Assembly (NCBI GenBank): GCA_014706385.1
Contig: JACGZH010000004.1
Coordinates: forward strand, 2,221,806-2,285,805
DNA from: Phaffia rhodozyma
Lineage: Eukaryota; Basidiomycota; Tremellomycetes; Cystofilobasidiales; Mrakiaceae
Direction: 5' to 3'
Length of the DNA: 64,000 nucleotides
Part shown: one piece after another, positions 36,318 to 59,297 of the stretch
Numbering within the stretch: position 1 is the stretch's first letter
Layout: each line of letters starts with the position of its first letter
Program-made: the position numbers and the translations under genes
The notes under the pieces: model-generated
What the model saw: the letters and a program-made list of their open reading frames with translations, nothing else
Databases searched by the model: none
Told to the model about the DNA's origin: nothing

Positions 36318-37870
36318 CCTTTAACAGATCTGTTCGTTCAGAATAAAATGCAAAAGAGATGAATAAGAAAGAGATGAAATGCCGGGTTGAATGGGGTGGT
36401 GAACGGCAAAAGAGTCGGTCAGGAAACGGTGGATGTAATACCAAACGGATCGAACAATTTTGGCGGATTGAAATTCTTTGTGGCTGTGCAAAATATCTTG
36501 TGCACGTGAATCAACTCCCGAAATTGATGGATTGAGGTTCCTTATATACAATCATGAAAACTTTCATATTTAACTCTTTTTCTTTGAGAATCTACAGTCT
36601 GACATGGTTTGAATCGTTGAATCTAGTAGTCCAGACATCAAATATGGAGTCAAGTTTTGTGAGCAACGAGTGGTGCAATTCGCCTTATTTCTCTATCTTT
36701 GGGATCTCGTATATACAGTAGATATTTTATTCTCTTTATTCTCTTCTGATTCTCTGGATCGATTAATTTTCACTTTGGTGTGAACATTCGTTTGAGGGAA
36801 TCAGAATCAGGAATCAGTTTGAGACAATAAGATGCAGGATAAAAATAAATAGACTCAGAGGATTTGAAAAGTAGGACTTTATCGTTTAAATAACTCCTTC
36901 AGAAACACAACCAAGTCTTGGGAGATCCATGGTATGTTCTATGAATGAGAAAACACTTATCTCTCAGCAAACAAACAGTATATGTGAATGCTGAGGAAAG
37001 GAAAGAAAAATAAGAGAAACGAAACGAAAAGAGAATGTCGAGCGCAGATATATGTGAAAGAACACAAAGCAGAACACAGGTGCGATGATGAGAAGATAGA
37101 TGAGAACAAACATAAGAAAAGAGAAGCTAAAAGACAATAAGAGAAACAGCCACGATGGAAGAAGATGTCTGCCAAGACGTCGACTGAGAAAGAATGGGTC
37201 GAAGTTGAAAGAGCACAAGTGTTATGGGCGCAGGCAAGGAGGCTGAGTAGGGGATGCACTCAGCGCGCTCAGGCTCTTGGAAGGTTCATGCGATATTGAA
37301 AGGAGGTTAAGGGCGAGGATGACTGTACGGAACTATGAGGATTTAACGAGGTTCCAAGCTTGGGAGAGAAAAGGGGAGATAGCTAACGACTACATAGTAT
37401 ATATGTCATTCGAGATATCAAGCCAAACAAACACAAGCAAGAGCGAAGAGATACCAAGGAGGAGCGAAGAGATACTAAGGAAGAGCCAAGATATAACCAC
37501 GAGAGAGTTAAGATGTAACAAGAGACTGTTGCAAGAATCGGTCTACATTGCGCAAAATCACCCTGCGCGGGTCCAACCGGGTCAGATCATGACAAACAGG
37601 GTGAAGATGGATTTTTCGTTCTGGCACTTGTTCCCAATCAAGTCCTCACTCGTTTCCCGAACCATATACACACCACCCAGGTGTTTCAGTAAAATGGATT
37701 GAGAAACCAGGAAAACAGGAGGAAACCCGCTAAAAAAGTTATAGCTCTTCGGAAAGACAGGCTTGAGACTCCGCGCAAACGGAAGTCGGAAGGTGATGCC
37801 TCAATAAGAGATAACAAATAACAGATGAAATTATGTCAAGACTGCTGAAACTCCAACAGTGTTGTGTGGA
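36318..37870. other. Region between UTP10 and the tRNA array
   Basis: About 1.55 kb without a supported gene. An AT-rich promoter side near UTP10 is followed by purine-rich sequence. A 141-residue frame at 37277-37702 has no recognisable domain and overlaps the short purine-rich repeat at 37441-37495. The first array unit begins at about 37871. Confidence 0.55.
37441..37495. repeat. Degenerate purine-rich tandem repeat
   Basis: Two to three imperfect copies of a unit of about 24 bp built on GAGCGAAGAGATAC, diverging to GAGCCAAGATAT. Confidence 0.6.
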
Positions 37871-37918
37871 CTGTATGCGCAGGGTATAGGACTGATGTAT
37901 GTGGACCCTGCCATCAAC

Positions 37919-37990
37919 GGGATGTTCGTATAATGGTTATTATTCCAGATTTCCATTCTGGAGACAGGTGTTCGATTCACCTACATCTCA
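37919..37990 (+). tRNA. tRNA-Gly(TCC)
   Basis: First gene of unit 1. Acceptor GGGATGT pairs 7/7 with ACATCTC; stem CCAGA/TCTGG encloses loop TTTCCAT (anticodon TCC, reads GGA). T-arm AGGTG/CACCT. No intron; T-run follows. Confidence 0.92.
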
Positions 37991-38158
37991 TTTTTGTCAT
38001 TTTTTTTTTGTGCGCGTGGCGGGGGCGGAGGCGGTGGCAGTACAAGACACTGGGCGGACGGCGGCAAGACTCTGAGGCACACGACCGGGGCGTGGGAGGG
38101 GCTAGTTGGGTGGTGGCGTTGGTGTCTAGGGGTACGGGCCGGGCTGGGGACTATAACC

Positions 38159-38252
38159 GCCCTGTTAGCTCAATCGGTAGAGCGTCAGACTCTTACCCAG
38201 TCTCTTGACAGTTGGCATCTGAAGGCTGGGGGTTCGACCCCCCCATGGGGCT
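38159..38252 (+). tRNA. tRNA-Lys(CTT), 21-nt intron
   Basis: Acceptor GCCCTGT/ATGGGGC; anticodon stem TCAGA/TCTGA, loop CTCTTA then a 21-nt intron before position 38. T-arm GGGGG/CCCCC. Confidence 0.92.
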
Positions 38253-38284
38253 AGCTTCGTTTTTGTGTGTCGGTGTGATTTTTT

Positions 38285-38316
38285 GTTTCTGTTTCTGTTT
38301 CTGTTTCTGTTTCTGT
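38285..38316. repeat. (GTTTCT)n hexanucleotide repeat
   Basis: About five copies after tRNA-Lys, present in all three units (also near 48032 and 57869). Confidence 0.8.
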
Positions 38317-38482
38317 TTTCGTTCTTTGTGTTTTTGTTTGCTGGCTTGGTGTGTGCTTGGTGGGCCGTCGACGGTGGAAGGGTGCATGGAGGGTTGAACA
38401 GAGGTGAGAGGTGGGTCGGCTGGTGGGTCGCGCGGGCATGTCTGACGATCTGGGCTGGTAGCACGGACAGACAGACACACAC

Positions 38483-38555
38483 GGGGATTTAGCTCAGTTG
38501 GCAGAGCGCAATCTTAGCATGGTTGAGGTCGTGAGTTCGATTCTTACAATCTCCA
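38483..38555 (+). tRNA. tRNA-Ala(AGC)
   Basis: Acceptor GGGGATT/AATCTCC; loop TTAGCAT in stem CAATC/GGTTG. No intron. T-run follows. Confidence 0.93.
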
Positions 38556-38765
38556 CTTTTTTGTGTCGTTTTTATGTGTTTTTTTGTGTTTTTTGGTAGT
38601 CTTTTTTTTTTTTTCCGCCCGCTGCCTTTTTTGCACTCTCTTCTTTCGCTCTGCTCCTCTCGGTCATGCTCCGTCCTGCCCACCACATCACACACCATGT
38701 GTTGCACCGAGACAGGCCGGCTGCTGCGAGCACACTGGCCGACCGGCCGGACAGGCCTTCATCCA

Positions 38766-38858
38766 GGTGAGGTGGCCGAGTGGTCTAAGGCGCTGTGTTA
38801 AGGCTCTTTCTATGCCCCGCAGTCAGTAATGGCGCGAGTTCGAATCTCGCCCTCATCA
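38766..38858 (+). tRNA. tRNA-Leu(AAG), 13-nt intron
   Basis: Long-variable-arm tRNA. Acceptor GGTGAGG/CCTCATC; anticodon stem CTGTG/CGCAG with AAG and a 13-nt intron after position 37. T-arm GCGAG/CTCGC. Confidence 0.9.
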
Positions 38859-39029
38859 CTTTTTGTCCGGCCGGCACGGGCCGTGCCTCTCGGGTCTGCC
38901 TGGCCGGGCTGTGCTCTCAGGTGCGGTGCCATGGTAGTATGATGCCACGTTGCAACACTGCCACACCCCCTTGCTGTCTGCCGGTCCGTTTTGGACTGTG
39001 GACTGAATGAACAGACCGTACAGCATCCA

Positions 39030-39100
39030 ACAGCTGTGGTGAAATGGTATCATTGGTGCTTGCCATGCACTAGGCCGGGGTTCGATTCCCCGCGGTTGTA
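39030..39100 (+). tRNA. tRNA-Gly(GCC)
   Basis: Acceptor ACAGCTG/CGGTTGT (with G-U pairs); loop TTGCCAT; T-arm CGGGG/CCCCG. Starts with A rather than the usual G. No intron. Confidence 0.88.
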
Positions 39101-39291
39101 TCCTTTTTTTTTCTCGTCCCACACACCGATCGGCTCTGTGCTGGCGGGTGCACATCTGCCGATCGTCCGTGTTCGGTCTCGCCGACTGGTGCGATGATGG
39201 TGTGTGCTGCCGTTCGGACGAGCAGTGCGTCTGTGCCGACACAGGGGCAGGACACGAAGGACGTACCGACGCGCTCGGTGGACACCAACCG

Positions 39292-39364
39292 TCCTTCTTA
39301 GCTCAGTTGGTAGAGCGCGACACTAGTAATGTCGAGGTCAGTCGTTCAAATCGGCTAGCAGGAA
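39292..39364 (+). tRNA. tRNA-Thr(AGT)
   Basis: Stem CGACA/TGTCG with loop CTAGTAA. Acceptor TCCTTCT/AGCAGGA has one T-C mismatch at pair 5:68; T-arm AGTCG/CGGCT. No intron. Confidence 0.85.
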
Positions 39365-39562
39365 CATTCTTCTTTTTTTTATTCTCCGTTCATTTCCGTT
39401 CATTTCTTCTTCTTCTTTTTCTGTTGTATCCTTCCCTGTCGCCCCGGCGGGCGTCTGGTCGACGCGTGCTCGTTAGGGTTCCGCACAAAGCACAGCACCA
39501 CACCACACCACACACCACAAACGACACCACAAACAACACCACAAACGCAGGGAAAGCATGCT

Positions 39563-39661
39563 GGTGAAGTGGCCGAGTGGTCTAAGGCGCTGTGTTTAGG
39601 TCTCTCTTCCGAGTCCAGACCGCAGTCAGTAATGGCGCGAGTTCAAATCTCGTCTTCATCA
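39563..39661 (+). tRNA. tRNA-Leu(TAG), 19-nt intron
   Basis: Acceptor GGTGAAG/CTTCATC; stem CTGTG/CGCAG, anticodon TAG, 19-nt intron after position 37. Close paralogue of the Leu(AAG) gene 800 bp upstream. Confidence 0.9.
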
Positions 39662-39696
39662 TTCCTTTTGTCCCGGCCGGGGGGGGCAGGGCAGCT

Positions 39697-39778
39697 GGGG
39701 ATTTAGGCTAGTTGGTAAACTGGACGCTTCGCACTGTCGATCATGTGTCATTCCTGGGTTCGATTCCCGGAGTCTCCA
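39697..39778 (+). tRNA. tRNA-Ala(CGC), 10-nt intron
   Basis: Acceptor GGGGATT/AGTCTCC; stem GACGC/GTGTC, anticodon CGC, intron about 10 nt. Lies only 35 bp after the Leu(TAG) gene, the tightest spacing in the unit. Confidence 0.88.
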
Positions 39779-39935
39779 TCTCTTTTTGGTGTGTTTCGGT
39801 GTGTTTTGTTTTATCTTGGCGTATTTGATTTCGTTGCATTTCATATGGCATGTTGTGTGTCGTGTTCTGTGTGTCTTCTCTTGGTCTGCTGCCCACCGGC
39901 TTGTGCTCACCGCTCACCGAGCGGCGTCCATCCAA

Positions 39936-40045
39936 GGCCGTTTGGCGGAGTGGTCTAACGCGGTAGCCTCGAACGAGTCCCCTCTGTGGGACGACGCGAC
40001 AGCTACTCTTCTCTGAAGGCGTAGGTTCAAATCCTACAGCGGTCG
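39936..40045 (+). tRNA. tRNA-Ser(CGA), 27-nt intron
   Basis: Acceptor GGCCGTT/AGCGGTC with G73; stem GTAGC/GCTAC, anticodon CGA, intron 27 nt; long variable arm; T-arm GTAGG/CCTAC. Confidence 0.9.
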
Positions 40046-40187
40046 TCCTTTCTCTTTTTCTTTTTGCCCACTTCCGTTCTCTCTGCCTTCTGTCGCGTCG
40101 ATCCTTCCTTGCTGTCTGTGTTTGCTGTCTCCGCATGCTCACACCCCGCCAGGCAGACAGACAGACGGGCTGACGGGCTGCCATCGT

Positions 40188-40281
40188 GCGTGATTGGTGT
40201 AGTGGTATCACGCCAAGTTTGGGCACACTTTCTGCCGTGCACATCTCTTGGAGGTCTTCGGTTCAATCCCGGAATCGCGCC
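40188..40281 (+). tRNA. tRNA-Pro(TGG), 22-nt intron
   Basis: Acceptor GCGTGAT/ATCGCGC, C73; stem CCAAG/CTTGG, anticodon TGG, intron 22 nt; T-arm TTCGG/CCGGA. Confidence 0.9.
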
Positions 40282-40811
40282 TTTTTGTTCGGCCCGTCTG
40301 GGCGGGTGGCGTGGTCGGTGTAGGGTTACTTGCTGTGTCAGTTGCTGTGTTACTTGCTGTGCTACTCATAGGATTACCCGCCACATAGCGTCCGCTGTTA
40401 CCCTATGCTGTGTACTCTTTTTTTTTTTCTTTTTTCTTTTTCCTCTCCCGTTTTTTCTTTGTCCTTTTTCTTTCCTCTTTTTTCCTCTTTTTTCCTTCTT
40501 TTTTCCCTTCTTTTTCCCCCTCTTTTTTCCCCTCTTTTCCCTCTTTTCCCTTCTTTTCCCTCTTTTCCTTTTTTCTTCTTTTTTCTTCTTTTTTCTTCTT
40601 TTTTCTTCTTTTTTTTCTGTCAACGATAGATGCATCAATATAGAAAGAGAAAAAGACATATGGCAGAAAGACAACAGCATAACAATGGCAACACAGTAAA
40701 AACATAGCGAGAACACAATGAGAACACAACGAGAACACAACCATGCAATGCAATGCACCAGCAACACAGTGTCAACACAGTGTCAACACAACAGAAAGAC
40801 CAAAACAAAAG
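40282..40811. other. Longest tRNA-free spacer, with polypyrimidine tract
   Basis: About 530 bp without a tRNA. About 40417-40618 is an almost pure C/T tract (TTTTTTC/TTCCTC units); then A-rich sequence with repeated GAACACAA motifs. Units 2 and 3 have the same tract at about 50167-50438 and 60023-60259 with length changes. Confidence 0.7.
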
Positions 40812-40824
40812 AAGGCAAAGATCC

Positions 40825-40921
40825 TCGTAGTCAGACGCCTTACCGCTGGGCCACTCGGCCAGAGCGAATGGGTGGTGGGACCACTAGACCAAGACGGGGT
40901 TCGAACCCGCGATTTCCTGAT
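40825..40921 (-). tRNA. Circularly permuted tRNA-Arg(ACG)
   Basis: On the minus strand the 3' half comes first (40921-40886: position 38, stem TCAGG, variable AAATC, T-arm GCGGG-TTCGAAC-CCCGT, acceptor CTTGGTC). After a 26-nt spacer comes the 5' half (40860-40825: acceptor GGCCGAG, D-arm TGGCCCAGCGGTAAGGC, stem TCTGA, loop CTACGA). The halves rejoin to a normal tRNA-Arg: GGCCGAG pairs 7/7 with CTTGGTC and TCTGA pairs with TCAGG (wobbles allowed). Neither half has a partner in the conventional order. The outer flanks form an 11-bp inverted repeat (40812-40822 with 40961-40971), and leader CTTGT (40930-40926) can pair with ACGAG at the anticodon, a bulge-helix-bulge-like splice structure. B box precedes A box. 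A TTTTG terminator follows. Confidence 0.85.
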
Positions 40922-41154
40922 GCATACAAGCTGGCAGCCGGCCATGACGACCGTTCCACCATCTTTGCCTTTAGCTTTCGTCTGGTTGTGTGGATGTATG
41001 GCCAAGTGGATGTGTGGGCGTTGGCTCTGCTAGGGTTATCCGAGGCGGTGGGCGTCCGGCCGATCCGTCCGATCGCCCATCGGATATCGGACGTCGGACG
41101 TCGGACGTCGAGCCCCGGAGTACGGAGCCCGGCGGAGAAAAGGCCGTGTCGATC

Positions 41155-41238
41155 GGTCGCCTGGTCTAGTGGTATGACGCTTGCTTCACATCTCACCCGG
41201 TGCGCAATAGGTCGCCAGTTCGATCCTGGCGGTGACCA
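41155..41238 (+). tRNA. tRNA-Val(CAC), about 12-nt intron
   Basis: Acceptor GGTCGCC/GGTGACC; anticodon CAC in stem CTTGC/GCAAT (one mismatch at 27:43); T-arm GCCAG/CTGGC. D-loop is one base shorter than in the unit 2 copy. Confidence 0.85.
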
Positions 41239-41465
41239 TGACGTCTTTTTGCCCTCAGCACACGCCCACGATGGACAGACCGAGAGAAGCCATCGCAAGA
41301 TAAGATGCATGATAAGATACACAGCCAGCCGACAGAGATGGCAGATAAGATCGACAGACACGATCGATCGGCAAGAAAGAAAGAAGATAAGATGGCGATA
41401 AAGACAAAAGACAAAAGACAAAAGACAAAAGATACAAGATAAAAGCCAGGTCGGCAAAAAGACAA

Positions 41466-41565
41466 GGCGCGATCCCGGGATTGAACCGAGGACCTCCGTC
41501 AGACACGTGTTTCATGCGAGCCAGCAAAGCCCGAAGACGGCGTGATACCACTACACCAATCCCGC
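41466..41565 (-). tRNA. tRNA-Pro(CGG), 28-nt intron
   Basis: Stem CCGTC/GACGG, anticodon CGG, intron 28 nt; acceptor GCGGGAT/ATCGCGC has a G-G mismatch at pair 4:69; T-arm CTCGG/CCGGG; C73. Confidence 0.87.
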
Positions 41566-41643
41566 CAGTGATCGCACAGGCCTGGCCGGTCAGTTTGTCG
41601 GTCTCCAGCCGGCCGTCCGTCCGTCCGTCCGGGAGGCAAAAGA

Positions 41644-41741
41644 TACTCCATATGAGGTTCGAACTCATGATCCTTGTTAAGCACTAGAGGCACGGACGGC
41701 AACCTATAAGAACAATGCGATAACCACTTCGCCAATGGAGT
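41644..41741 (-). tRNA. tRNA-Ile(TAT), 25-nt intron
   Basis: Acceptor ACTCCAT/ATGGAGT; stem TTGTT/AACAA, anticodon TAT, intron 25 nt; T-arm ATGAG/CTCAT. Ile(TAT) carries an intron in many fungi. Confidence 0.9.
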
Positions 41742-41914
41742 AAAGGTAAGCGTCGGTGGAAAAAGACGAGAGATGACAAGACAGGACGAGACAGGACGAG
41801 ACAGGACGAGAGAAGGCCGCACCGGACGGCACACGCCAGACCGGGCCGAGTCCGACAGAAGACGGCACAGGCGGCAGGAGGGAGGACGGGAAAAAGAGGG
41901 CGAAAAAAAAGGAA

Positions 41915-41997
41915 AGGTCCTACTCAGATTCGAACTGGGGATTCGAGAAGGTGAGTCAATCAGAATCTCGCGTGATAACCAACTTCACCATAGAACC
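41915..41997 (-). tRNA. tRNA-Gln(CTG), about 10-nt intron
   Basis: Acceptor GGTTCTA/TAGGACC; stem CGAGA/TCTCG, anticodon CTG, short intron; one C-A mismatch in the T-stem. Confidence 0.87.
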
Positions 41998-42189
41998 GGT
42001 CGTTGTCGGCCTATTGCCCTCGCGAGTCTCGTTCTGGCGGTGTGTCCGCTGGCAAGGGTCCGTCGGCGCGTGTCCGCTGGCAGGTGTGCTTACATCGCTG
42101 GCCGACCTGTCCGCCCGCCGCACGTGGCCCGGCCGGCATGACACGCACGGCCGACCCGATACACACAGCGGACATCGGAGCAAAAAGCA

Positions 42190-42262
42190 AGCCCAAACGC
42201 GGATTTGAACCACGGACCTCACCGTTACGAGCGGCGCACTATAACCACTTAGCTATTCGGGC
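42190..42262 (-). tRNA. tRNA-Thr(CGT)
   Basis: Acceptor GCCCGAA/TTTGGGC; stem CGCCG/CGGTG, loop CTCGTAA; no intron. Confidence 0.88.
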
Positions 42263-42413
42263 CTGGTGCCCGTCGCCCGGTCGTGTTGTCTCTAAGGGTG
42301 TTGGTGTGTCGATGTGTTGGTGTACCGGTGTGGTCAGGACCCGGCCCACACCGTCCGCTCGGCCAGACGTAGCCCATCGAGGTCGACCGCCGGGGCGGCT
42401 GGGCAGTCAACGT

Positions 42414-42500
42414 GCCTGGGTAGTTTAGTGGTAAAACGTAGGTCTCATACCGTCACCCGAGTGTGATCCTCAGCCGCGAGTTCGATTCTCGCTCTGGGCA
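42414..42500 (+). tRNA. Probable elongator tRNA-Met(CAT), about 16-nt intron
   Basis: Acceptor GCCTGGG/TCTGGGC, D-arm and T-arm (GCGAG/CTCGC) are sound. The anticodon region reads CTCATA, as in elongator Met, but stem TAGGT pairs poorly with TCCTC (three good pairs). The intron is assumed after position 37. Identity is therefore less certain than for its neighbours. Confidence 0.55.
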
Positions 42501-42742
42501 ACTCTTTTTTTTCCTCTTTTGCTGTGTTTCCCATCCTTCCTGATGGTTGGTGGGCGGCCGGGCTGGGCCAGGCGGAGGTGCGGTCGGATCCGGCCGTCAG
42601 ATGGGCTGAGCATGACGGCAGTGGAAGTGGCGGCGGTGGCGGTGGCGGTGGCGTCGGCAGTGCTGATGACGACGACGACTGCTGCTGCGCAGAGTCCGCT
42701 TGGACGAGAATCTATCCGGACAAACGGTGCTGGCACCATACC

Positions 42743-42829
42743 CGCCGCTTAGCTCATCTGGAAGAGCGTTGGTTTGTAAAGGATACACTTGTTCACCGAA
42801 GGCACTCGGTTCGATCCCGAGAGCGGCGA
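42743..42829 (+). tRNA. tRNA-Tyr(GTA), 14-nt intron
   Basis: Acceptor CGCCGCT/AGCGGCG (C1:G72, the eukaryotic Tyr identity pair), stem TTGGT/ACCGA, anticodon GTA, 14-nt intron. Confidence 0.93.
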
Positions 42830-43051
42830 TCTTGTTTTTTTGCCTTTTGCTTTTTGTTCTTTTTTGTTCTTTTTTTTCTGCCTTGTGGCTGCTTCCTCTT
42901 TGACTGCTAGGGTTCCTGCCTTCGGTCCAGTCCGGTCGCTCTCACGCAGCATGCGCACTGTCTCGGCCAGACGGGCGATGCGACCGATGACGTTCTCCCA
43001 GCTGCTGCTGCCGATGTAGTGGTCACCGGGGCAGGGCAAGTGATCATATCT

Positions 43052-43150
43052 GGCCGATTGGTGTAGTGGCTATCACAGCAGTTTTCGGTACTCGTCCGCA
43101 AGGTCGTCTTCGCTCGCTGCTGGTCGTCGGTTCGATCCCGACATCGGTCT
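43052..43150 (+). tRNA. tRNA-Arg(TCG), 26-nt intron
   Basis: Acceptor GGCCGAT/ATCGGTC, close to that of the permuted Arg gene. With position 26 an A, stem GCAGT/GCTGC gives anticodon TCG and a five-base variable loop; a register shift would give TTC (Glu), but G1 and the variable-loop length favour Arg. Confidence 0.78.
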
Positions 43151-43364
43151 AAATGTTCACTTTTTGTGTCCCCCTTTCTTTTTTGCCCTCCTTTTTGCCC
43201 TTCTTTTTCTCTGCACGCTCTCTCTGCACTCTGTTTCTATCGGCCGTTGTGTGGGTCACTGTCTGTCCGACCGGTCTGGCCTGTGTGCGCGTGTCCACCA
43301 CGGTCGAGCCAGGTCGACACAGCTCCCTGTGGTGGGGCAGGCAGACGGGCGGGAAAACAAAAAA

Positions 43365-43438
43365 AGACCCATACCCGACTTGAACGGATGACCTCAAGAT
43401 TTGGAATCTTGCGCTGCTACCAACTGAGCTAATGGGTC
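43365..43438 (-). tRNA. tRNA-Trp(CCA)
   Basis: Acceptor GACCCAT/ATGGGTC; stem CAAGA/TCTTG, loop TTCCAAA; T-arm ATCCG/CGGGT; no intron. Confidence 0.92.
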
Positions 43439-43595
43439 GCTTGCCCGGAGGCTCCGTGCCCAGAGGGTATGTCGAGCGCCCGGCTGGCTGGCCGTACAGA
43501 CGGTGGCACCATGCGGCCGGCTTGCAGGCCTCCAGCACGGACGGCCGGACGGGGGCCAGGGAAAAAACCGAGGGAAAACGAGCAAAAAGACAATG

Positions 43596-43667
43596 TTGCC
43601 AAGGCCCGTCTCGATCAGGCGACCTCCGGGTTATGAGCCCGGCGCGCTTCCACTGCGCTACTTGGCA
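43596..43667 (-). tRNA. Initiator tRNA-Met(CAT)
   Basis: Body reads AGCGCAGTGGAAGCGCGC, stem CCGGG/CCCGG with CTCATAA, and a T-loop ATCGAGA with A54 and A60, the eukaryotic initiator marks. Pair 1:72 is T-A. No intron. Confidence 0.94.
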
Positions 43668-43734
43668 TTGATGGGAGACCATGGCTGAGGAGTGTGTATG
43701 TGGTGTCGGCCGCAGGTCACGTGCCGGTGTCGAT

Positions 43735-43806
43735 GTCAGTGTCGACGTCAGTGTCGATGCCAGTGCCAGCACCAGTGTCATTACCAATGCCAGTGTCAAT
43801 GCCAGT
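43735..43806. repeat. GTCAGTGTC-type minisatellite
   Basis: Imperfect 6-12 bp repeats (GTCGATGTCAGT, GCCAGTGTCAAT) in the spacer before tRNA-Ile; also in units 2 and 3. Confidence 0.65.
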
Positions 43807-43875
43807 CACACCATCGACTGGTGCGACCGACGGTACACCTGGCCATGGTCTGCCGGGTGGGCCTGACAGTCATCG

Positions 43876-43949
43876 GATCGATTAGCTCAGTTGGTTAGAG
43901 CGTGGTGCTAATAACGCCAAGGTCGCGGGTTCGACCCCCTCATTGATCA
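43876..43949 (+). tRNA. tRNA-Ile(AAT)
   Basis: Acceptor GATCGAT/ATTGATC; stem TGGTG/CGCCA, loop CTAATAA; one C-T mismatch in the T-stem; no intron. Confidence 0.9.
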
Positions 43950-44205
43950 CTTTTTCTTTCTTTTTCTAATTTTCGCCATCTTTTTTTGCCATCTTTTTTG
44001 CACCCCTCCTGTTCTCGACCGTTGCGGTCTGTGTGGCATTGTTGTCGACTGGCACGCTCCATGGTGAGCGATGCAGTGTTGTGACGGTGTGACGATGTGG
44101 TGGTGCAGTGGCGACGATGGGAACGCAGATATACACCCGGCTGTGCTGGACAGTGTCCGACCAGACATGGGCCTATGGTGTCTGGGCTGGGCTGGGAGGC
44201 ATCGT

Positions 44206-44292
44206 GCATGCTTGGTGTAGTGGTATCGCGCCATGTTAGGGTCTTTGCGCCTTGTCTCATGGAGGTCCTCAGTTCAATCCTGGGAGCGTGCC
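44206..44292 (+). tRNA. tRNA-Pro(AGG), 15-nt intron
   Basis: Acceptor GCATGCT/AGCGTGC, C73; stem CCATG/CATGG, anticodon AGG, 15-nt intron. Confidence 0.9.
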
Positions 44293-44501
44293 TTTTTTCC
44301 TTTTCCTTTCGTTCTTTGTTTCCTTTTCCCGAGCGCTTCCTGTCGCTCTTCGTTGTTTTCTGCCACTTTTCACTCACTTTTTGCCACTCTCCGCCACTTT
44401 CTCGGCAGCAGACAAGCGATGTGTGCACCCGGTGGAGACGTCTCTGACGCATGGACAAGCTGTCTGGACAAGGTGTCTGGACACGGATGACAGCCATCAA
44501 G

Positions 44502-44573
44502 TCCTCAATTGTCTAACGGCTATGATAACCGCCTCTCACGCGGTAGGCCCGGGTTCGACTCCCGGTTGGGGAT
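44502..44573 (+). tRNA. tRNA-Glu(CTC)
   Basis: Acceptor TCCTCAA/TTGGGGA; stem ACCGC/GCGGT, loop CTCTCAC; no intron. Confidence 0.92.
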
Positions 44574-44803
44574 CTCTCTTTTGGTCTTTTCTTTTGCTCT
44601 CGTTTCTTTTTTTCTTTTTTTCCTTGTCCTTCTTTCCTTTCGTCTTTCTGTTTCGTCTTGTTTTTGTATGTCCGTTCTGACCACTGGTATCAGCGCTGGT
44701 GTGTGCCTGCGGGTACTGTGTGGTTGAATGCACGGTATGGGGTGCATGCACCGGCCAGCTGTCCAGCCACCTGGCGAGCGGACAAGGCTGACAACCAACC
44801 GAC

Positions 44804-44875
44804 TCTTGGATGGTCTAACGGTTATGATTTCCGCCTGTCACGCGGGAGACCGGGGTTCGACTCCCCGTCCGGGAG
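44804..44875 (+). tRNA. tRNA-Asp(GTC)
   Basis: Acceptor TCTTGGA/TCCGGGA; stem TCCGC/GCGGG, loop CTGTCAC; T-arm CGGGG/CCCCG; G73. Confidence 0.92.
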
Positions 44876-44904
44876 CACTTTTTGCCTTTTGCTCCTCTCT
44901 TTTG

Positions 44905-44958
44905 TACTTGCATTTGTACTTGCATTTGCATTTGCATTTGCATCTGCATTTGCATTTT
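44905..44958. repeat. (GCATTT)n repeat
   Basis: About eight imperfect hexamers after tRNA-Asp, shortened in unit 2. Confidence 0.75.
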
Positions 44959-45256
44959 TTCTTTCCATTCTCTTTTGCTGTACAGCTGTATGGTTGTCTT
45001 GCTTTGTTGTGTTTGTCCGTCGACGGCCATCGATCGTTATCTTTTTTTCTTTGGTCTGTATGTCTCCTTCTTTTTCTCTTTCTTTTTCTTTTGCTCTCTT
45101 TGACGGCGCATGTTTGGCAGCACACGCTCCGAAAGACGCACCGAGCACAGCACAGCACAGCACAGCACGCCGACACGTGTGCGCTGGGCAGACCAACTGG
45201 CTGGATGGCTGTTGAGCACAGGCTATGGGCAGTCGATCGGCAGACCGAGACCATAC

Positions 45257-45339
45257 GCTGTCTTAATCAAGTGGTCTACGATGAGAGATTAGAAATCTCT
45301 TCCTCTTTGAGGGCGCAGGTTCGAATCCTGCAGACAGCT
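45257..45339 (+). tRNA. tRNA-Ser(AGA)
   Basis: Acceptor GCTGTCT/AGACAGC; stem AGAGA/TCTCT, anticodon AGA; long variable arm; no intron. Confidence 0.9.
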
Positions 45340-45562
45340 TTCTTTTGCACCCTGTACTTTGCCACCGTGGCCTTTGCTCTTTTTGCTTTTTTTTTTCTTC
45401 TTCTTCTCTTCTATGCCTTTGCCTATGTGTGTCTATGGTTGTCGTTCATGTATGCATAGTACGCACACACCGGGCAGCCAGCCCAAACAAAAAAAAAAGA
45501 CGGCCACACCATCGAAGCCATCCTCACTGACACACAGAGCGAGGACCGGAAAAAAAAAGGGA

Positions 45563-45648
45563 TGCCGTCAGCCTGAATCGAACAGGCGACCTTATGATTG
45601 CGGACAGATGTCTTCAGTCATACGCTCCACCAATTGAGCTATGACGGC
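45563..45648 (-). tRNA. tRNA-Phe(GAA), 13-nt intron
   Basis: Acceptor GCCGTCA/TGACGGC; stem TATGA/TCATA, anticodon GAA, 13-nt intron. Confidence 0.93.
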
Positions 45649-45843
45649 CGATGACAGTCAGCGCCGTCCATCAGGCCATGGCCCGTCTGGGTGGCTGTCG
45701 GGCCGTCGGGCCGTCCGGCTGGCACTCACTCGGTCGGTCTCAGCCGGGTCGGTGTGTGTGCTGACGCGGCAGGCAAAACATGCTGGGCACTGACCGTCAG
45801 CGTGTGCTGTCTGAGTGCTCGGACACAGCAGGCGACCATCCCA

Positions 45844-45916
45844 TGCCCTGTAGCTCAGTTGGTAGAGCGTGGAGCTGTTAACTCCAAGGTCTACGGTTCG
45901 AGCCCGTACGGGGCAG
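45844..45916 (+). tRNA. tRNA-Asn(GTT)
   Basis: Acceptor TGCCCTG/CGGGGCA; stem TGGAG/CTCCA, anticodon GTT; no intron. Confidence 0.93.
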
Positions 45917-45970
45917 TCTTTTTGTCGTCTTTTTGTCGTCTTTTTGTCGTCTTTTTGTCGTCTTTTTGTC
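45917..45970. repeat. 11-bp tandem repeat TCTTTTTGTCG
   Basis: About five copies directly after tRNA-Asn, so the terminator T-run is repeated. Confidence 0.8.
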
Positions 45971-46112
45971 TCCTCATTTTTTTTCCCTCTCCCTTTCCTG
46001 TGCAGTACTTCCCCTCTCGTCTTCTGCCGTCCATGAGGTGTGCGTGTTCTTGGTATGTTCTTGCGATGGACATCATCCATCTTCCACCAGCATGCTCGGC
46101 CGGCAAGAAAAA

Positions 46113-46185
46113 AGGAGTCACCCGGGATTGAACCAGGGACCTGCTGGGTTGCAACCAGCCGCAACTACCGCTGTGCTATAACTCC
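46113..46185 (-). tRNA. tRNA-Cys(GCA)
   Basis: Acceptor GGAGTTA/TGACTCC; stem GCTGG/CCAGC, loop TTGCAAC; T73 as usual for Cys. Confidence 0.93.
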
Positions 46186-46466
46186 GTATGAGGCTGCCGC
46201 GCCATCGGACAGATCATCCACAGGCACGCTTGCACACATGCACACAGCACAGTGGCAGCCGCTTTGTCGTCCTGCGATCGAGTAGTGGCAGCTGTGGACG
46301 CAACATCGCCCGGTGCGACCAGGCCGGCGTCACAGATGCTGCATCTGCACAGAGAAAACAAAAGGAACAAAGGAGCAGAAAAAAGAACAGGAAAAAAGAG
46401 CAAGAAAAAAGAGCAAGAAAAAAGAGCAAGAAAAAAGAGCAAAAAGAACAAAAAGAACAAAAAGAG

Positions 46467-46538
46467 TAGTCGCACCCAGAGTCGAACTGGGGTCGTGAGT
46501 GTGTTAGACTCAAGTGATAACCGTTACACCATGCAACT
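46467..46538 (-). tRNA. tRNA-Val(AAC)
   Basis: Acceptor AGTTGCA/TGCGACT; stem TGAGT/ACTCA, anticodon AAC; no intron. Confidence 0.92.
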
Positions 46539-46729
46539 CTGATGACTGCCGGTCTCTGCCCAGTATCCTACTCATCGACCAGGCACCGCTCGCTCCGCCG
46601 TCTGCCCGCCCGCCGCTGTGTGTCCATCGGTCGGCCGGCCCATCAGCCCGATCGTGCGACACCGGGACCATGCCTGCCGACAAGCTGGCCCTCAGACGAG
46701 GCAGCCCGGGGAGAAAACAAAAAGGATCG

Positions 46730-46802
46730 TTCCCCATCCGGGAGTCGAACCCGGGTCCTCAGCGTGAAAAGCTGATATCGTAAACCGTTTGACCAATGAG
46801 GA
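46730..46802 (-). tRNA. tRNA-Glu(TTC)
   Basis: Acceptor TCCTCAT/ATGGGGA; stem TCAGC/GCTGA, loop TTTTCAC; no intron. Confidence 0.92.
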
Positions 46803-46942
46803 CTAGTACAAGCACGCCGAATCGGTCGAGTCGTCTGCAGTCGTCTGCAGTCGTGCGCAGTCGTGTGCAGCCTGCTCCGTCGTGCGGTAGGCTGTGAGCG
46901 GGTGGCCGCCGGTCAGCATGCTTCCGACCGGACGGCAAAAAG

Positions 46943-47014
46943 TGGACCCAGCAGGGATTGAACCCGCGGCCTTTCGCATGCAAAGCGAATGTGATACCAC
47001 TACACCATAAGCCC
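46943..47014 (-). tRNA. tRNA-Ala(TGC)
   Basis: Acceptor GGGCTTA/TGGGTCC (G-U at three pairs); stem TTCGC/GCGAA, loop TTTGCAT. Confidence 0.9.
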
Positions 47015-47052
47015 GTGTGGGATGGAGGCGTGGTGTGTCGGCCGGTGGGGCG

Positions 47053-47112
47053 AAGTGCGGTGCGGTGCGGTGAGGTGCGGTAAGGTGCGGTGCGGTAAGG
47101 TGCGGTGAGGTG
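47053..47112. repeat. (GCGGT)n / GTGAG short repeats
   Basis: Pentamer repeats GTGCG/GTGAG between tRNA-Ala and tRNA-Leu; a related TGTGCGGGAG repeat lies at 47290-47340. Confidence 0.7.
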
Positions 47113-47188
47113 AGGTCTGGTATGATGCTATCAGAAACAGAGTCTTGGTTGCAAAACCACACGGAACCTCTCGGCGGGGGGCAAAAGA

Positions 47189-47270
47189 TGAACAGAGGGG
47201 GATTCGAACCCCCGCATCTTGCGATATCAGAACTTGAGTCTGACGCCTTAGACCGCTCGGCCATCTGTCC
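47189..47270 (-). tRNA. tRNA-Leu(CAA)
   Basis: Acceptor GGACAGA/TCTGTTC; stem TCAGA/TCTGA, loop CTCAAGT; long variable arm; no intron. Confidence 0.92.
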
Positions 47271-47380
47271 GGATGGGGTGCGTGAGGTGTGTGTGGGTCC
47301 GGGAGTGTGCGGGAGGTGTGCGGGAGTGTGCGGGAGTGTGGGCCGGGTAGAGCGAGTGCACCCTGCCCGGGCACACACAC

Positions 47381-47466
47381 GCCCCGTTGGCAGAATGGTA
47401 ACGCGTCTCCTTCCTACTGTCTGGTGAGAGAGGTGAAGATTCTGGGTTCAATCCCCAGGCGGGGTT
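47381..47466 (+). tRNA. tRNA-Arg(CCT), 14-nt intron
   Basis: D-arm GGCAGAATGGTAACGC and stem TCTCC with CCT resemble fungal Arg(CCT). Stem 3' side GGTGA has one T-T mismatch; acceptor pair 1:72 is G-T. Confidence 0.83.
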
Positions 47467-47664
47467 TCTCTTTTTTTGCGGCGGGCGTGGTTGGGGTGTG
47501 AGTGGGGTGTGAGTGGGGTGTGGTTGGGGTGTGGTTGAGGTGTGAGTGAGAAGGTGGGTGAGAATGTGGGTGTACACGTGAGACGCTTGGTATGCTGGCG
47601 GGCTGTAGAGTGTGCACTGTATGCGCAGGGTATAGGACTGATGTATGTGGACCCTGCCATCAAC

Positions 47665-47736
47665 GGGATGTTCGTATAATGGTTATTATTCCAGATTTCC
47701 ATTCTGGAGACAGGTGTTCGATTCACCTACATCTCA
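47665..47736 (+). tRNA. tRNA-Gly(TCC), unit 2
   Basis: Copy of 37919-37990, no differences. Confidence 0.92.
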
Positions 47737-47904
47737 TTTTTGTCATTTTTTTTTTGTGCGCGTGGCGGGGGCGGAGGCGGTGGCAGTACAAGACACTGGG
47801 CGGACGGCGGCAAGACTCTGAGGCACACGACCGGGGCGTGGGAGGGGCTAGTTGGGTGGTGGCGTTGGTGTCTAGGGGTACGGGCCGGGCTGGGGACTAT
47901 AACC

Positions 47905-47998
47905 GCCCTGTTAGCTCAATCGGTAGAGCGTCAGACTCTTACCCAGTCTCTTGACAGTTGGCATCTGAAGGCTGGGGGTTCGACCCCCCCATGGGGCT
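47905..47998 (+). tRNA. tRNA-Lys(CTT), unit 2
   Basis: Copy of 38159-38252, intact, intron 21 nt. Confidence 0.92.
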
Positions 47999-48227
47999 AG
48001 CTTCGTTTTTGTGTGTCGGTGTGATTTTTTGTTTCTGTTTCTGTTTCTGTTTCTGTTTCTGTTTTCGTTCTTTGTGTTTTTGTTTGCTGGCTGGTGTGTG
48101 CTTGGTGGGCCGTCGACGGTGGAAGGGTGCATGGAGGGTTGAACAGAGGTGAGAGGTGGGTCGGCTGGTGGGTCGCGCGGGCATGTCTGACGATCTGGGC
48201 TGGTAGCACGGACAGACAGACACACAC

Positions 48228-48302
48228 GGGGATTTAGCTCAGTTGGCAGAGCGCGCAATCTTAGCATGGTTGAGGTCGTGAGTTCGATTCTTACAATCTC
48301 CA
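48228..48302 (+). tRNA. tRNA-Ala(AGC), unit 2, 2-nt insertion
   Basis: GC duplicated between D-arm and anticodon stem relative to unit 1, which would disturb the D/anticodon junction. Confidence 0.8.
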
Positions 48303-48515
48303 CTTTTTTTGTGTCGTTTTTATGTGTTTTTTTTGTGTTTTTTGGTAGTCTTTTTTTTTTTTTTCCGCCCGCTGCCTTTTTTGCACTCTCTTCTTTCGCT
48401 CTGCTCCTCTCGGTCATGCTCCGTCCTGCCCACCACATCACACACCATGTGTTGCACCGAGACAGGCCGGCTGCTGCGAGCACACTGGCCGACCGGCCGG
48501 ACAGGCCTTCATCCA

Positions 48516-48609
48516 GGTGAGGTGGCCCGAGTGGTCTAAGGCGCTGTGTTAAGGCTCTTTCTATGCCCCGCAGTCAGTAATGGCGCGAGTTCGAATCTCG
48601 CCCTCATCA
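48516..48609 (+). tRNA. tRNA-Leu(AAG), unit 2, 1-nt insertion
   Basis: Extra C in the D-stem (TGGCCCGAG). Confidence 0.8.
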
Positions 48610-48781
48610 CTTTTTGTCCGGCCGGCACGGGCCGTGCCTCTCGGGTCTGCCTGGCCGGGCTGTGCTCTCAGGTGCGGTGCCATGGTAGTATGATGCCACG
48701 TTGCAAACACTGCCACACCCCCTTGCTGTCTGCCGGTCCGTTTTGGACTGTGGACTGAATGAACAGACCGTACAGCATCCA

Positions 48782-48852
48782 ACAGCTGTGGTGAAATGGT
48801 ATCATTGGTGCTTGCCATGCACTAGGCCGGGGTTCGATTCCCCGCGGTTGTA
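48782..48852 (+). tRNA. tRNA-Gly(GCC), unit 2
   Basis: Identical to the unit 1 gene. Confidence 0.88.
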
Positions 48853-49044
48853 TCCTTTTTTTTTCTCGTCCCACACACCGATCGGCTCTGTGCTGGCGGG
48901 TGCACATCTGCCGATCGTCCGTGTTCGGTCTCGCCGACTGGTGCGATGATGGTGTGTGCTGCCGTTCGGACGAGCAGTGCGTCTGTGCCGACACAGGGGC
49001 AGGACACGAAGGACGTACCGACGCGCTCGGTGGACACCAACCGT

Positions 49045-49117
49045 CCCTTCTTAGCTCAGTTGGTAGAGCGCGACACTAGTAATGTCGAGGTCAGTCGTTC
49101 AAATCGGCTAGCAGGAA
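49045..49117 (+). tRNA. tRNA-Thr(AGT), unit 2
   Basis: Extra C in the 5' acceptor strand compared with unit 1; the rest unchanged. Confidence 0.78.
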
Positions 49118-49313
49118 CATTCTTCTTTTTTTTATTCTCCGTTCATTTCCGTTCATTTCTTCTTCTTCTTTTCTGTTGTATCCTTCCTGTCGCCCCGGCG
49201 GGCGTCTGGTCGACGCGTGCTCGTTAGGGTTCCGCACAAAGCACAGCACCACACCACACCACACACCACAAACGACACCACAAACAACACCACAAACGCA
49301 GGGAAAGCATGCT

Positions 49314-49411
49314 GGTGAAGTGGCCGAGTGGTCTAGGCGCTGTGTTTAGGTCTCTCTTCCGAGTCCAGACCGCAGTCAGTAATGGCGCGAGTTCAAATCT
49401 CGTCTTCATCA
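49314..49411 (+). tRNA. tRNA-Leu(TAG), unit 2, 1-nt deletion
   Basis: One A lost in the D-arm (CTAGGCG for CTAAGGCG). Confidence 0.8.
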
Positions 49412-49447
49412 TTCCTTTTTGTCCCGGCCGGGGGGGGCAGGGCAGCT

Positions 49448-49529
49448 GGGGATTTAGGCTAGTTGGTAAACTGGACGCTTCGCACTGTCGATCATGTGTC
49501 ATTCCTGGGTTCGATTCCCGGAGTCTCCA
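49448..49529 (+). tRNA. tRNA-Ala(CGC), unit 2
   Basis: Intact copy of 39697-39778. Confidence 0.88.
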
Positions 49530-49688
49530 TCTCTTTTTGGTGTGTTTCGGTGTGTTTTGTTTTATCTTGGCGTATTTGATTTCGGTTGCATTTCATATGG
49601 CATGTTTGTGTGTCGTGTTCTGTGTGTCTTCTCTTGGTCTGCTGCCCACCGGCTTGTGCTCACCGCTCACCGAGCGGCGTCCATCCAA

Positions 49689-49797
49689 GGCCGTTTGGCG
49701 GAGTGGTCTAACGCGGTAGCCTCGACGAGTCCCCTCTGTGGGACGACGGCGACAGCTACTCTTCTCTGAAGGCGAGGTTCAAATCCTACAGCGGTCG
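49689..49797 (+). tRNA. tRNA-Ser(CGA), unit 2, several indels
   Basis: One A lost at the anticodon/intron boundary, one G gained in the intron and one T lost in the T-stem. Confidence 0.72.
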
Positions 49798-49944
49798 TCC
49801 TTTCTCTTTTTCTTTTTTGCCCACTTCCGTTCTCTCTGCCTTCTGTCGCGTCGATCCTTCCTTGCTGTCTGTGTTTGCTGTCTCCGCAATGCTCACATCC
49901 GGCCGCCAGGCAGACAGACGACGGCTGACGGTCTTGGCCATCTT

Positions 49945-50040
49945 GCGTGATTGGTGTCGTGTTTCACGCCAAGTTTGGGCACACTTTCTGTCCGTGCACA
50001 TCTTCTTGGAGGTCTTTCGTTTCAATCCCGTAATCGCGCC
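49945..50040 (+). pseudogene. Degraded tRNA-Pro(TGG), unit 2
   Basis: D-arm changed to GGTGTCGTGTTTCACGCC, extra bases in the intron, and T-arm altered to TTTCGTTTCAATCCCGTA, breaking both internal promoter boxes. Either a pseudogene or badly resolved sequence; the unit 1 and 3 copies are intact. Confidence 0.65.
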
Positions 50041-50645
50041 TTTTTGTTCGGGCCCGTCTGGGCGGGTTGGCGTGGTCGGTGTATGGTTACTTGCTGTGTC
50101 AGTTGCTGTGTTACTTGCTGTGGCTACTCATAGGAGTAACCCGCCACATAAGCGTCCGCTGTACCCTATGCGTTTAATCTTTTTTTTTTCTTTTTTCTTT
50201 TTCCTCTCCTCTCCGTTTTTTTTCTTTGTCCTTTTCTTTCCTCTTTTTTCCCATTTCCTTTTTCCCTTTCCTTCTTTTTTCCCTTCTTTTTCCCCCTCTT
50301 TTTTCCCCTCTTTTCCTTCCCTCTTTTCCTTTTTCTCTCCCTTATTTTCCCCTCTTTTTCCTGTTTCCTTTTTTCCCTCTTTTCTTCTTTTTCTTTCTTT
50401 CTTCTTCTTTTCTTCTTTTTTCTTCTTTTTTTTTTTCTGTCACCGATAGATGCATCAATATAGAAAGAGAAAAAGACATATGGCAGAAAGACAACAGCAT
50501 AACAATGGCAACCACAGTAAAAACATAGCGAGAACACAATGAGAACACAACGAGAACACAACCATGCAATGCAATGCACCAGCAACACAGTGTCAACACA
50601 GTGTCAACACAACAGAAAGACCAAAACAAAAGAAGGCAAAGATCC

Positions 50646-50742
50646 TCGTAGTCAGACGCCTTACCGCTGGGCCACTCGGCCAGAGCGAATGGGTGGTGGG
50701 ACCACTAGACCAAGACGGGGTTCGAACCCGCGATTTCCTGAT
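50646..50742 (-). tRNA. Permuted tRNA-Arg(ACG), unit 2
   Basis: Same permuted order as 40825-40921 (3' half 50742-50707, 5' half 50681-50646) with identical sequence, including the 11-bp flanking inverted repeat (50633-50643 with 50782-50792), although neighbouring genes carry indels. Confidence 0.85.
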
Positions 50743-50979
50743 GCATACAAGCTGGCAGCCGGCCATGACGACCGTTCCACCATCTTTGCCTTTAGCTTTC
50801 GTCTGGTTGTGTGGATGTATGGCCAAGTGGATGTGTGGGCGTTGGCTCTGCTAGGGTTATCCGAGGCGGGTGGGCGTTCCGGCCGATCCGTCCGATCGCC
50901 CATCGGATATCGGACGTCGGACGTCGGACGTCGAGCCCCGGAGTACGGAGCCCGGCGGAGAAAAAGGCCGTGTCGATCG

Positions 50980-51064
50980 GGTCGCCTGGTCTAGTGGTTA
51001 TGACGCTTGCTTCACATCTCACCCGGTGCGCAATAGGTCGCCAGTTCGATCCTGGCGGTGACCA
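50980..51064 (+). tRNA. tRNA-Val(CAC), unit 2
   Basis: One extra T in the D-loop (GGTTATGAC), the more usual form. Confidence 0.85.
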
Positions 51065-51292
51065 TGACGTCTTTTTGGCCCTCAGCACACGCCCACGATG
51101 GACAGACCGAGAGAAGCCATCGCAAGATAAGATGCATGATAAGATACACAGCCAGCCGACAGAGATGGCAGATAAGATCGACAGACACGATCGATCGGCA
51201 AGAAAGAAAGAAGATAAGATGGCGATAAAGACAAAAGACAAAAGACAAAAGACAAAAGATACAAGATAAAAGCCAGGTCGGCAAAAAGACAA

Positions 51293-51392
51293 GGCGCGAT
51301 CCCGGATTGAACCGAGGACCCTCCGTCAGACACGTGTTTCATGCGAGCCAGCAAAGCCCGAAGACGGCGTGATACCACTACACCAATCCCGC
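51293..51392 (-). tRNA. tRNA-Pro(CGG), unit 2, indels
   Basis: One base lost in the T-stem and one gained in the variable region. Confidence 0.78.
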
Positions 51393-59262: not shown

Positions 59263-59297
59263 TTCCTTTTGTCCCGGCCGGGGGGGGCAGGGCAGCT

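What the first reader, a model, noticed from the sequence alone, without database searches (positions are those of the whole stretch)
40812..40971. Circularly permuted tRNA-Arg(ACG) gene in a fungus
On the minus strand the T-arm half precedes the D-arm half. Rejoined, they give a normal tRNA-Arg: acceptor GGCCGAG/CTTGGTC pairs 7/7, anticodon stem TCTGA/TCAGG pairs 5/5 with one wobble, and the body resembles fungal Arg(ACG). No conventional partner exists for either half within reach. The precursor's 5' leader and 3' trailer form an 11-bp helix, and leader CTTGT can pair with ACGAG at the anticodon, as expected for a splicing-endonuclease substrate. Permuted tRNA genes are established in red algae, prasinophyte-type green algae, nucleomorphs and Thermofilum; I know of none in fungi. 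The arrangement is sequence-identical in all three units (also 50633-50792 and 60453-60612) although flanking genes vary, arguing against an assembly accident and for selection.
Basis: partly seen in the sequence, partly recalled or inferred. Interest (0 to 1): 0.97.

Follow-up and report, generated by a model that had tools for sequence, protein, structure and literature searches.

The report
Circularly permuted arginine tRNA in fungus
A basidiomycete-like fungus seems to encode its arginine tRNA (anticodon ACG) back to front, second half before first half, in dozens of tandem copies and with no ordinary version found; such genes were known to us only from some algae and one archaeon.

Summary
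On the minus strand the 3' half (40921-40886) precedes the 5' half (40860-40825), 25 nt apart. Joined at 37/38 they give an intact 72-nt tRNA-Arg(ACG), nearly as similar to yeast and human Arg(ACG) (recalled) as those are to each other. All 44 copies found in the 19.8-Mb genome have this order. Four genome searches found no conventional Arg(ACG).

Two features support one precursor: a perfect 11-bp leader/trailer helix (0 of 3000 shuffles; 10 of 4000 genomic windows), and no T4 run until just past the trailer. New here: the leader holds an A box 54 nt before the B box (conventional array genes: median 53), restoring the order that permutation reverses.

Corrections: identity between units is no evidence of selection, because the unit is homogenised (99.3%). 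The -3 anticodon-intron pair is absent in the 37/38 register. Best reading: a type II circularly permuted tRNA gene, a new member of a known kind in a new kingdom.

The parts
40922..40971 (-). 5' leader of the proposed precursor (5' end of transcript not known)
   Evidence: pairs with the trailer, contains an A box and a hairpin, ends in CTTGTATGC just before position 38
40961..40971 (-). leader arm of the 11-bp leader/trailer helix
   Evidence: 0 of 3000 shuffles and 10 of 4000 genomic windows reach 11 bp
40951..40961 (-). A-box-like TGGTGGAACGG in the leader
   Evidence: PWM score 11.3 against array-tRNA median 11.9 (bonus for GG included); 20 of 73972 background positions score as high, p about 0.014 for the leader; 54 nt upstream of the B box
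40925..40930 (-). leader CUUGUA that can pair with anticodon-loop UACGAG
   Evidence: fold with the cloverleaf enforced
40886..40921 (-). tRNA-Arg(ACG) 3' half, positions 38-73 (T arm, acceptor 3' strand, U73)
40897..40907 (-). B box GGTTCGAACCC
40861..40885 (-). 25-nt intervening sequence between position 73 and position 1
40825..40860 (-). tRNA-Arg(ACG) 5' half, positions 1-37; anticodon ACG at 40828-40826
40812..40822 (-). trailer arm of the 11-bp helix
40802..40810 (-). two T4 runs (40810-40807, 40805-40802), first T runs of 4 or more in the precursor; likely Pol III terminator
50633..50792 (-). second copy, identical
60453..60612 (-). third copy, identical
37870..64000 (.). tandem array of ~9.7-9.85-kb units; the first unit has 33 conventional tRNA genes by ARAGORN plus the permuted Arg

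Best explanation
It is a type II (37/38) circularly permuted nuclear tRNA-Arg(ACG) gene of a basidiomycete-like fungus, repeated once per unit of a tandem tRNA array and probably the only source of this tRNA. Proposed working: (1) Pol III transcribes leader, 3' half, spacer, 5' half and trailer as one RNA, stopping at the T4 runs; TFIIIC can bind because an A box in the leader sits upstream of the B box at the usual distance (inferred). (2) Leader and trailer pair over 11 bp and the leader end pairs with the anticodon loop, giving a pre-tRNA-like splice region (sequence shown, folding inferred). (3) The tRNA splicing endonuclease cuts after 37 and before 38; Trl1 ligase joins the ends into a circle (inferred; genes present). 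(4) RNase P and tRNase Z cut out the 25-nt spacer at the acceptor stem and CCA is added (inferred from C. merolae). (5) The ICG tRNA reads CGU and CGC codons (inferred).
For: Joined halves form an intact Arg(ACG): 48/73 to yeast and 52/73 to human Arg(ACG), yeast against human 53/73 (recalled sequences). 44 of 44 copies keep the order. Genome-wide query with the joined sequence finds only the separate halves in arrays (44 first-look candidates, 40 scored). 5'-half ACG pattern: 42 array sites and 5 others (control 15); 4 of the 5 have at most 2 of 4 D-stem pairs, and ARAGORN finds no tRNA at the fifth, C11:701427. Intronless ACG pattern: 16 hits against 26 in the reversed control; none has five T-stem pairs, and ARAGORN finds no tRNA at any of them. 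11-bp terminal helix. A box at proper spacing. T runs only after the trailer. Trl1-type ligase, two tRNA_int_endo hits, one only at the cut-off, a Sen54-type N-terminus hit, a partial TFIIIC B-block hit (that family also rings in 4 of 14 prokaryote controls). About 15 conventional array tRNAs carry introns, so splicing must work. CGT/CGC codons occur in window ORFs, 44 and 30 of 4083. U73 as in the array's Arg(TCG) and Arg(CCT) and the dispersed Arg(TCT) (read by eye).
Against: No RNA data. In the 37/38 register C32 faces U at -3, whereas 14 of 15 parsed conventional introns here pair 32 with -3 (14 of 16 if the poorly parsed Met(CAT) is counted); a 38/39 register would restore that pair but give G38. 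The unconstrained minimum-energy fold of the precursor (-65.2 kcal/mol) is not the cloverleaf (-55.6 when enforced). Almost no substitutional variation between copies, so no covariation test. The general 5'-half pattern fits only 22 of 33 array tRNAs, so an odd conventional gene, or one in unassembled DNA, could be missed. No relative with the same gene could be fetched; one scan of viral contigs found none. The only Rfam match over the element is a weak YrlA one (18 bits, E 8.9, gathering score 69).
Confidence: 0.86

Rival explanations
1. Silent relic: a once tandemly duplicated Arg(ACG) gene lost its outer halves and is copied along passively by homogenisation of the array; a conventional Arg(ACG) gene in unassembled DNA does the work.
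For: The unit is homogenised as a whole, so identity does not prove use. Contigs break off inside arrays, and C12:1-3000 reads N, a gap or a withheld stretch. The leader resembles a tRNA 5' half (23 of 32 ungapped matches to Asp-GTC; 4 of 300 shuffles and 6 of 300 array spacers reach that score), as the duplication model expects.
Against: All pairs and the checked conserved tRNA positions are intact. Four searches of 19.77 Mb find no conventional gene. The leader/trailer helix, A box and terminator placement have no reason to persist in a relic.
Confidence: 0.09
2. Split tRNA: the two halves are transcribed separately and joined in trans through the complementary leader and trailer, as in Nanoarchaeum (recalled).
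For: An 11-bp complement between leader of the 3' half and trailer of the 5' half would also serve trans-joining.
Against: Only 25 nt lie between the halves, with no T4 run to end the first transcript; trans-splicing needs an extra assumption.
Confidence: 0.03
3. A poor conventional tRNA: leader plus 3' half, which ARAGORN reports as tRNA-Gly(gcc) when shown the precursor alone with introns off and its score threshold lowered, with the 5' half as debris.
For: ARAGORN call on the isolated 181-nt stretch at 90% threshold; A box and B box stand in conventional order.
Against: Mismatches in acceptor and anticodon stems; not reported by ARAGORN in the window nor by the Rfam tRNA model at E up to 10; does not explain why the downstream 5' half fits the 3' half at 7/7 acceptor and 5/5 anticodon pairs and as Arg(ACG).
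Confidence: 0.01
4. Assembly error or chance juxtaposition.
For: 9 of 44 copies are not exact over 231 nt and 4 of 44 lack an exact copy of one or both halves, mostly by small indels that look like read errors.
Against: Same order in 44 of 44 copies on 9 contigs; chance rate about 0.2 per Mb per strand.
Confidence: 0.01

Closest known systems
Circularly permuted tRNA genes of Cyanidioschyzon merolae, type II junction 37/38 (PMC3978253: Table 1 seen in part as a passage, section 5 read)
   Same: 3' half before 5' half, junction 37/38, short intervening sequence (Table 1: 7-31 bp for its type II genes; here 25), downstream T stretch; expected circular intermediate
   Different: The review says A and B boxes are inverted and that upstream TATA-like sequences likely serve C. 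merolae; here an A box lies in the leader before the B box and only 2 of 33 array tRNA genes have TATA within 50 nt upstream. Host is a fungus; the gene is multicopy in a tandem array.
Permuted tRNA genes of prasinophyte green algae and the Bigelowiella nucleomorph (Table 1 of PMC3978253) and of Auxenochlorella (PMC12633428, passages)
   Same: Type II junction in nearly all listed; Auxenochlorella's too were found after tRNAscan-SE gave an incomplete set
   Different: Photosynthetic lineages. The part of Table 1 that I saw lists Arg(TCT) in O. tauri and Arg(CCT) in C. merolae, no permuted Arg(ACG).
Thermofilum pendens permuted tRNAs (Chan et al. 2011, PMC3218864: search listing only; details from PMC3978253)
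   Same: Sole genes for their anticodons, according to PMC3978253
   Different: Archaeon; the iMet junction is at 59/60
Entamoeba tandem tRNA gene arrays (PMC2888827, passages)
   Same: tRNA genes packed in tandem units that make up arrays
   Different: Here one ~9.8-kb unit carries 33 conventional tRNAs plus the permuted one; fungal host

Membership tests
circularly permuted tRNA gene | 3' half upstream of 5' half on the same strand, close together | tested here: met
circularly permuted tRNA gene | joined halves give a complete canonical tRNA | tested here: met
   ARAGORN tRNA-Arg(acg), all stems, conserved positions
circularly permuted tRNA gene | termini of precursor form a splicing-endonuclease substrate (BHB or hBH-like) | tested here: inconclusive
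   11-bp leader/trailer helix and 6-bp loop helix, but no 32/-3 pair in the 37/38 register and MFE prefers another fold
circularly permuted tRNA gene | no competing conventional gene for the same anticodon (not strictly required) | tested here: met
   sensitivity limits stated; unassembled DNA not covered
circularly permuted tRNA gene | circular RNA intermediate | not testable with these tools
   needs RNA
circularly permuted tRNA gene | mature aminoacylated tRNA produced | not testable with these tools
   needs RNA
split (trans-spliced) tRNA | halves made from separate transcripts | tested here: inconclusive
   25-nt gap, no T4 run between the halves; needs RNA

The most novel reading that the evidence does not exclude
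A fungus has made a permuted gene its only source of the essential tRNA-Arg(ICG), and adapted it to TFIIIC-dependent transcription by keeping or recruiting an external A box, in a leader that looks like a worn tRNA 5' half. The gene would thus be a tandem-duplication relic turned into a promoter-competent permuted gene, the missing step in the duplication model for permuted tRNA origin.
Probability: 0.45. Interest if true: 0.93.

Novelty: new member of a known kind. Interest (0 to 1): 0.86.

Why it matters
In the papers I could search, permuted tRNA genes are described in red and green algae, a nucleomorph and Thermofilum, none in a fungus or other opisthokont (11 papers hold the phrase and 'fungi', 9 listed, all 9 opened at the passages; 33 papers, 31 listed, most seen as listing only; 1 paper). 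A permuted gene that is the sole Arg(ACG) source would show that a fungal splicing endonuclease and Trl1 ligase can support an essential circular tRNA intermediate. It would make the open question of how Pol III reads a gene with inverted promoter boxes directly testable, because the leader supplies an A box at the normal distance. It would also explain why ARAGORN and the Rfam tRNA model report no Arg(ACG) in the window.

Tried and rejected
Selection inferred from identity of units: rejected, since the whole unit is homogenised; variation is concentrated in repeat-rich stretches. Covariation of the helix: impossible, one substitution in the aligned stretches of 44 copies, the rest indels. Outer tRNA with acceptor GGCAAAG/CTTTGCC: no T arm before CTTTGCC (by eye). 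Conventional Arg(ACG): four searches and follow-up of 19 loci (46, 50); the one ARAGORN hit there is a Gly(ccc) call in L099, not Arg. Of the 5 off-array hits, 2 were fetched; of the 5. Naming the species: three protein searches (best 120, all 9 and best 120 rows listed) gave almost only unnamed proteins; the only organism name among the listed rows was Coprinopsis. Relatives: one viral contigs pattern scan, no match (47); metagenome and genome collections not scanned. Literature on fungal tRNA arrays: nothing on fungal arrays in the listings; PMC2888827 read in passages only. Searches were swamped (8,549 and 8,448 papers, none of the 10 rows listed in each holding the permuted-tRNA term) and tell nothing.

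Full report
What is there. The window is the end of a 2.29-Mb contig (C9:2221806-2285805) of a 19.77-Mb genome in 15 contigs. From 37870 on it is a tandem array with a period of about 9.75-9.85 kb. The first unit holds 33 conventional tRNA genes by ARAGORN with introns allowed; the Rfam tRNA model finds 30 of these (31 rows, one of them belonging to the next unit). Between the array's Pro(TGG) and Val(CAC) genes (anticodons assigned by eye) lies the reported element. ARAGORN does not report it in the window, nor does the Rfam tRNA model; the only Rfam row over it is a weak YrlA match (18 bits, E 8.9). On the minus strand the 3' half (40921-40886) comes first, then 25 nt, then the 5' half (40860-40825). 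Joined, they make a 72-nt tRNA that ARAGORN calls Arg(acg), with every stem formed. None of the 15 intronless array tRNAs compared nor the dispersed Arg(TCT) exceeds 46 matches to either.

Chance and artefact. A strict permuted-tRNA scan (all pairs required, T8, T33, GG in the D loop) found only the three copies in the window, none in 214,378 scanned bases of non-array loci, three in the array loci of C12, and two hits in 10 Mb of Markov-1 sequence. The 24-nt core of the 5' half was found at 42 places and that of the 3' half at 42 places; together they mark 44 copies. In 44 of 44 the order is permuted. 35 are exact over 231 nt, 39 over the 160 nt 40812-40971, and 40 have both 36-nt halves exact. 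Of the nine not exact over 231 nt, one is cut by a contig end, one differs only at its last bases, and seven carry small gaps, one of these also a single substitution. An alignment of 28 copies with 1.2 kb on each side and of the first two whole units (99.34% of 9713 aligned columns; 33 of 40 blocks at 99% or more) shows that the unit is homogenised throughout, so the identity of this gene among units is no proof of selection.

Is there an ordinary Arg(ACG)? The joined sequence, searched against the genome, returns only half-length matches, all in arrays in permuted order (44 first-look candidates, 40 scored). A general pattern for a 5' half with anticodon ACG returns 42 array sites and 5 others against 15 in the reversed-pattern control. 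Four of the five have at most 2 of 4 D-stem pairs; the fifth (C11:701427) has 3, but ARAGORN finds no tRNA in its locus. This pattern would catch 22 of 33 array tRNAs had they this anticodon. The 13-mer GCGTCTGACTACG with one mismatch gives 44 array sites and 5 others (control 21); two of the five were fetched and show no Arg tRNA. The intronless ACG pattern gives 16 hits against 26 in its control; none has five T-stem pairs and ARAGORN finds no tRNA there. A conventional gene in unassembled or withheld DNA cannot be excluded.

Signs of one precursor. Leader and trailer share a perfect 11-bp helix: 0 of 3000 shuffles and 10 of 4000 genomic windows reach that length. The leader's CUUGUA can pair with UACGAG of the anticodon loop, and both helices form when the cloverleaf is enforced. 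There is no T4 run in the precursor before 40810, just after the trailer; conventional array genes have their first T run 1-11 nt after the gene. Against this, the free minimum-energy fold is a different structure (-65.2 against -55.6 kcal/mol). And position 32 faces U at -3 in the 37/38 register. By my reading, 14 of 15 parsed conventional introns pair those positions; I left out Met(CAT) 42413, which did not parse well and would be a second failure, and Ser(AGA), whose long arm I take not to be an intron. A 38/39 junction would restore the pair but make position 38 a G, unlike yeast and human Arg(ACG) as recalled.

Transcription. The review of permuted genes (PMC3978253, section 5 read) states that the A and B boxes are inverted and poorly suited to TFIIIC, and that TATA-like elements probably serve C. 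merolae. Here only 2 of 33 array genes have TATA within 50 nt upstream. The leader contains TGGTGGAACGG at 40961-40951, scoring 11.3 on an A-box matrix built from the array (array median 11.9); 20 of 73,972 background positions do as well, about 1.4% for the leader. It lies 54 nt before the B box; in the 33 conventional genes this distance is 42-81, median 53. The leader aligns without gaps to the 5' half of the array's Asp(GTC) at 23 of 32 positions; 4 of 300 shuffles and 6 of 300 array spacers score as high. So A-to-B order is restored, by a leader that may itself be a worn tRNA 5' half. This is moderate evidence: the A-box and alignment tests are not independent of each other.

Machinery and host. 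The genome has a Trl1-type RNA ligase, two tRNA_int_endo hits, one of them only at the cut-off, a Sen54-type N-terminal hit and a partial TFIIIC B-block hit, a family that also rings in 4 of 14 prokaryote controls. About 15 of the array's conventional tRNAs carry introns, so a splicing pathway must run. BRR2 is 51% identical to Coprinopsis (P0100, 482 bits) and 71% to an unnamed protein. Among solved structures it scores 216.5 bits with 8ro0 (nematode, recalled), 205.4 with human and 116.7 with yeast BRR2, so the basidiomycete placement rests on Coprinopsis. RPB2 and Mus7/MMS22 searches named no species. Telomeres are TTAGGG. So: a basidiomycete-like fungus, species unknown. CGT and CGC occur 44 and 30 times in 4083 codons of six window ORFs; that they need an ICG tRNA in eukaryotes is general knowledge.

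Mechanism and novelty. The best explanation is the C. merolae route: one transcript, endonuclease cut at the paired termini, ligation to a circle, RNase P and tRNase Z trimming. Steps after transcription are inferred. For print: ('permuted tRNA' with 'fungi') found 11 papers, 9 listed, all 9 opened at the passages that hold the term (three of them only cite it in their reference lists); (the phrase alone) found 33 papers, 31 listed, most seen as listing only; one search found one. None shows a fungal case. The library holds open-licence papers only, so an account in print elsewhere is possible. I class it as a new member of a known kind: new kingdom, apparently sole gene, array-borne, and possibly a new promoter solution.

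Noticed in passing
37870-64000; also G000 C4, C5, C6, C7, C10, C11, C12, C13: Tandem tRNA array in a fungus: ~9.8-kb unit with 33 conventional tRNA genes, at least 44 units judged by the permuted gene; contigs C4-C7 (19-55 kb) carry it at regular spacing, C9, C10, C12, C13 end in it and C11 begins in it, while the far ends of C9, C10 and C13 carry telomere repeats, so arrays may lie inside chromosomes. Entamoeba-like organisation; no fungal report seen in the listings of searches.
   Followed up: partly
window 39697-39781, 41155-41238, 43052-43150, 45563-45648, 47381-47466: ARAGORN mislabels several intron-bearing array tRNAs; by the 37/38 rule they read as Ala(CGC), Val(CAC), Arg(TCG), Phe(GAA) and Arg(CCT) (partly by eye).
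   Followed up: partly
array units, tRNA upstream regions: Many array tRNA genes have a CATC motif a few bases before the gene (by eye), perhaps a start-site signal; the permuted gene has CATCC about 20 nt before its helix.
   Followed up: no
L001-L008, L050, L054: Arg(TCT) and Thr(TGT) genes occur dispersed outside the array, while neither anticodon was listed in the unit.
   Followed up: no
array Arg tRNAs and dispersed Arg(TCT): The Arg tRNAs looked at here (ACG, TCG, CCT, TCT) appear to have U at position 73 (by eye), unusual against yeast Arg(ACG), which has G (recalled).
   Followed up: no
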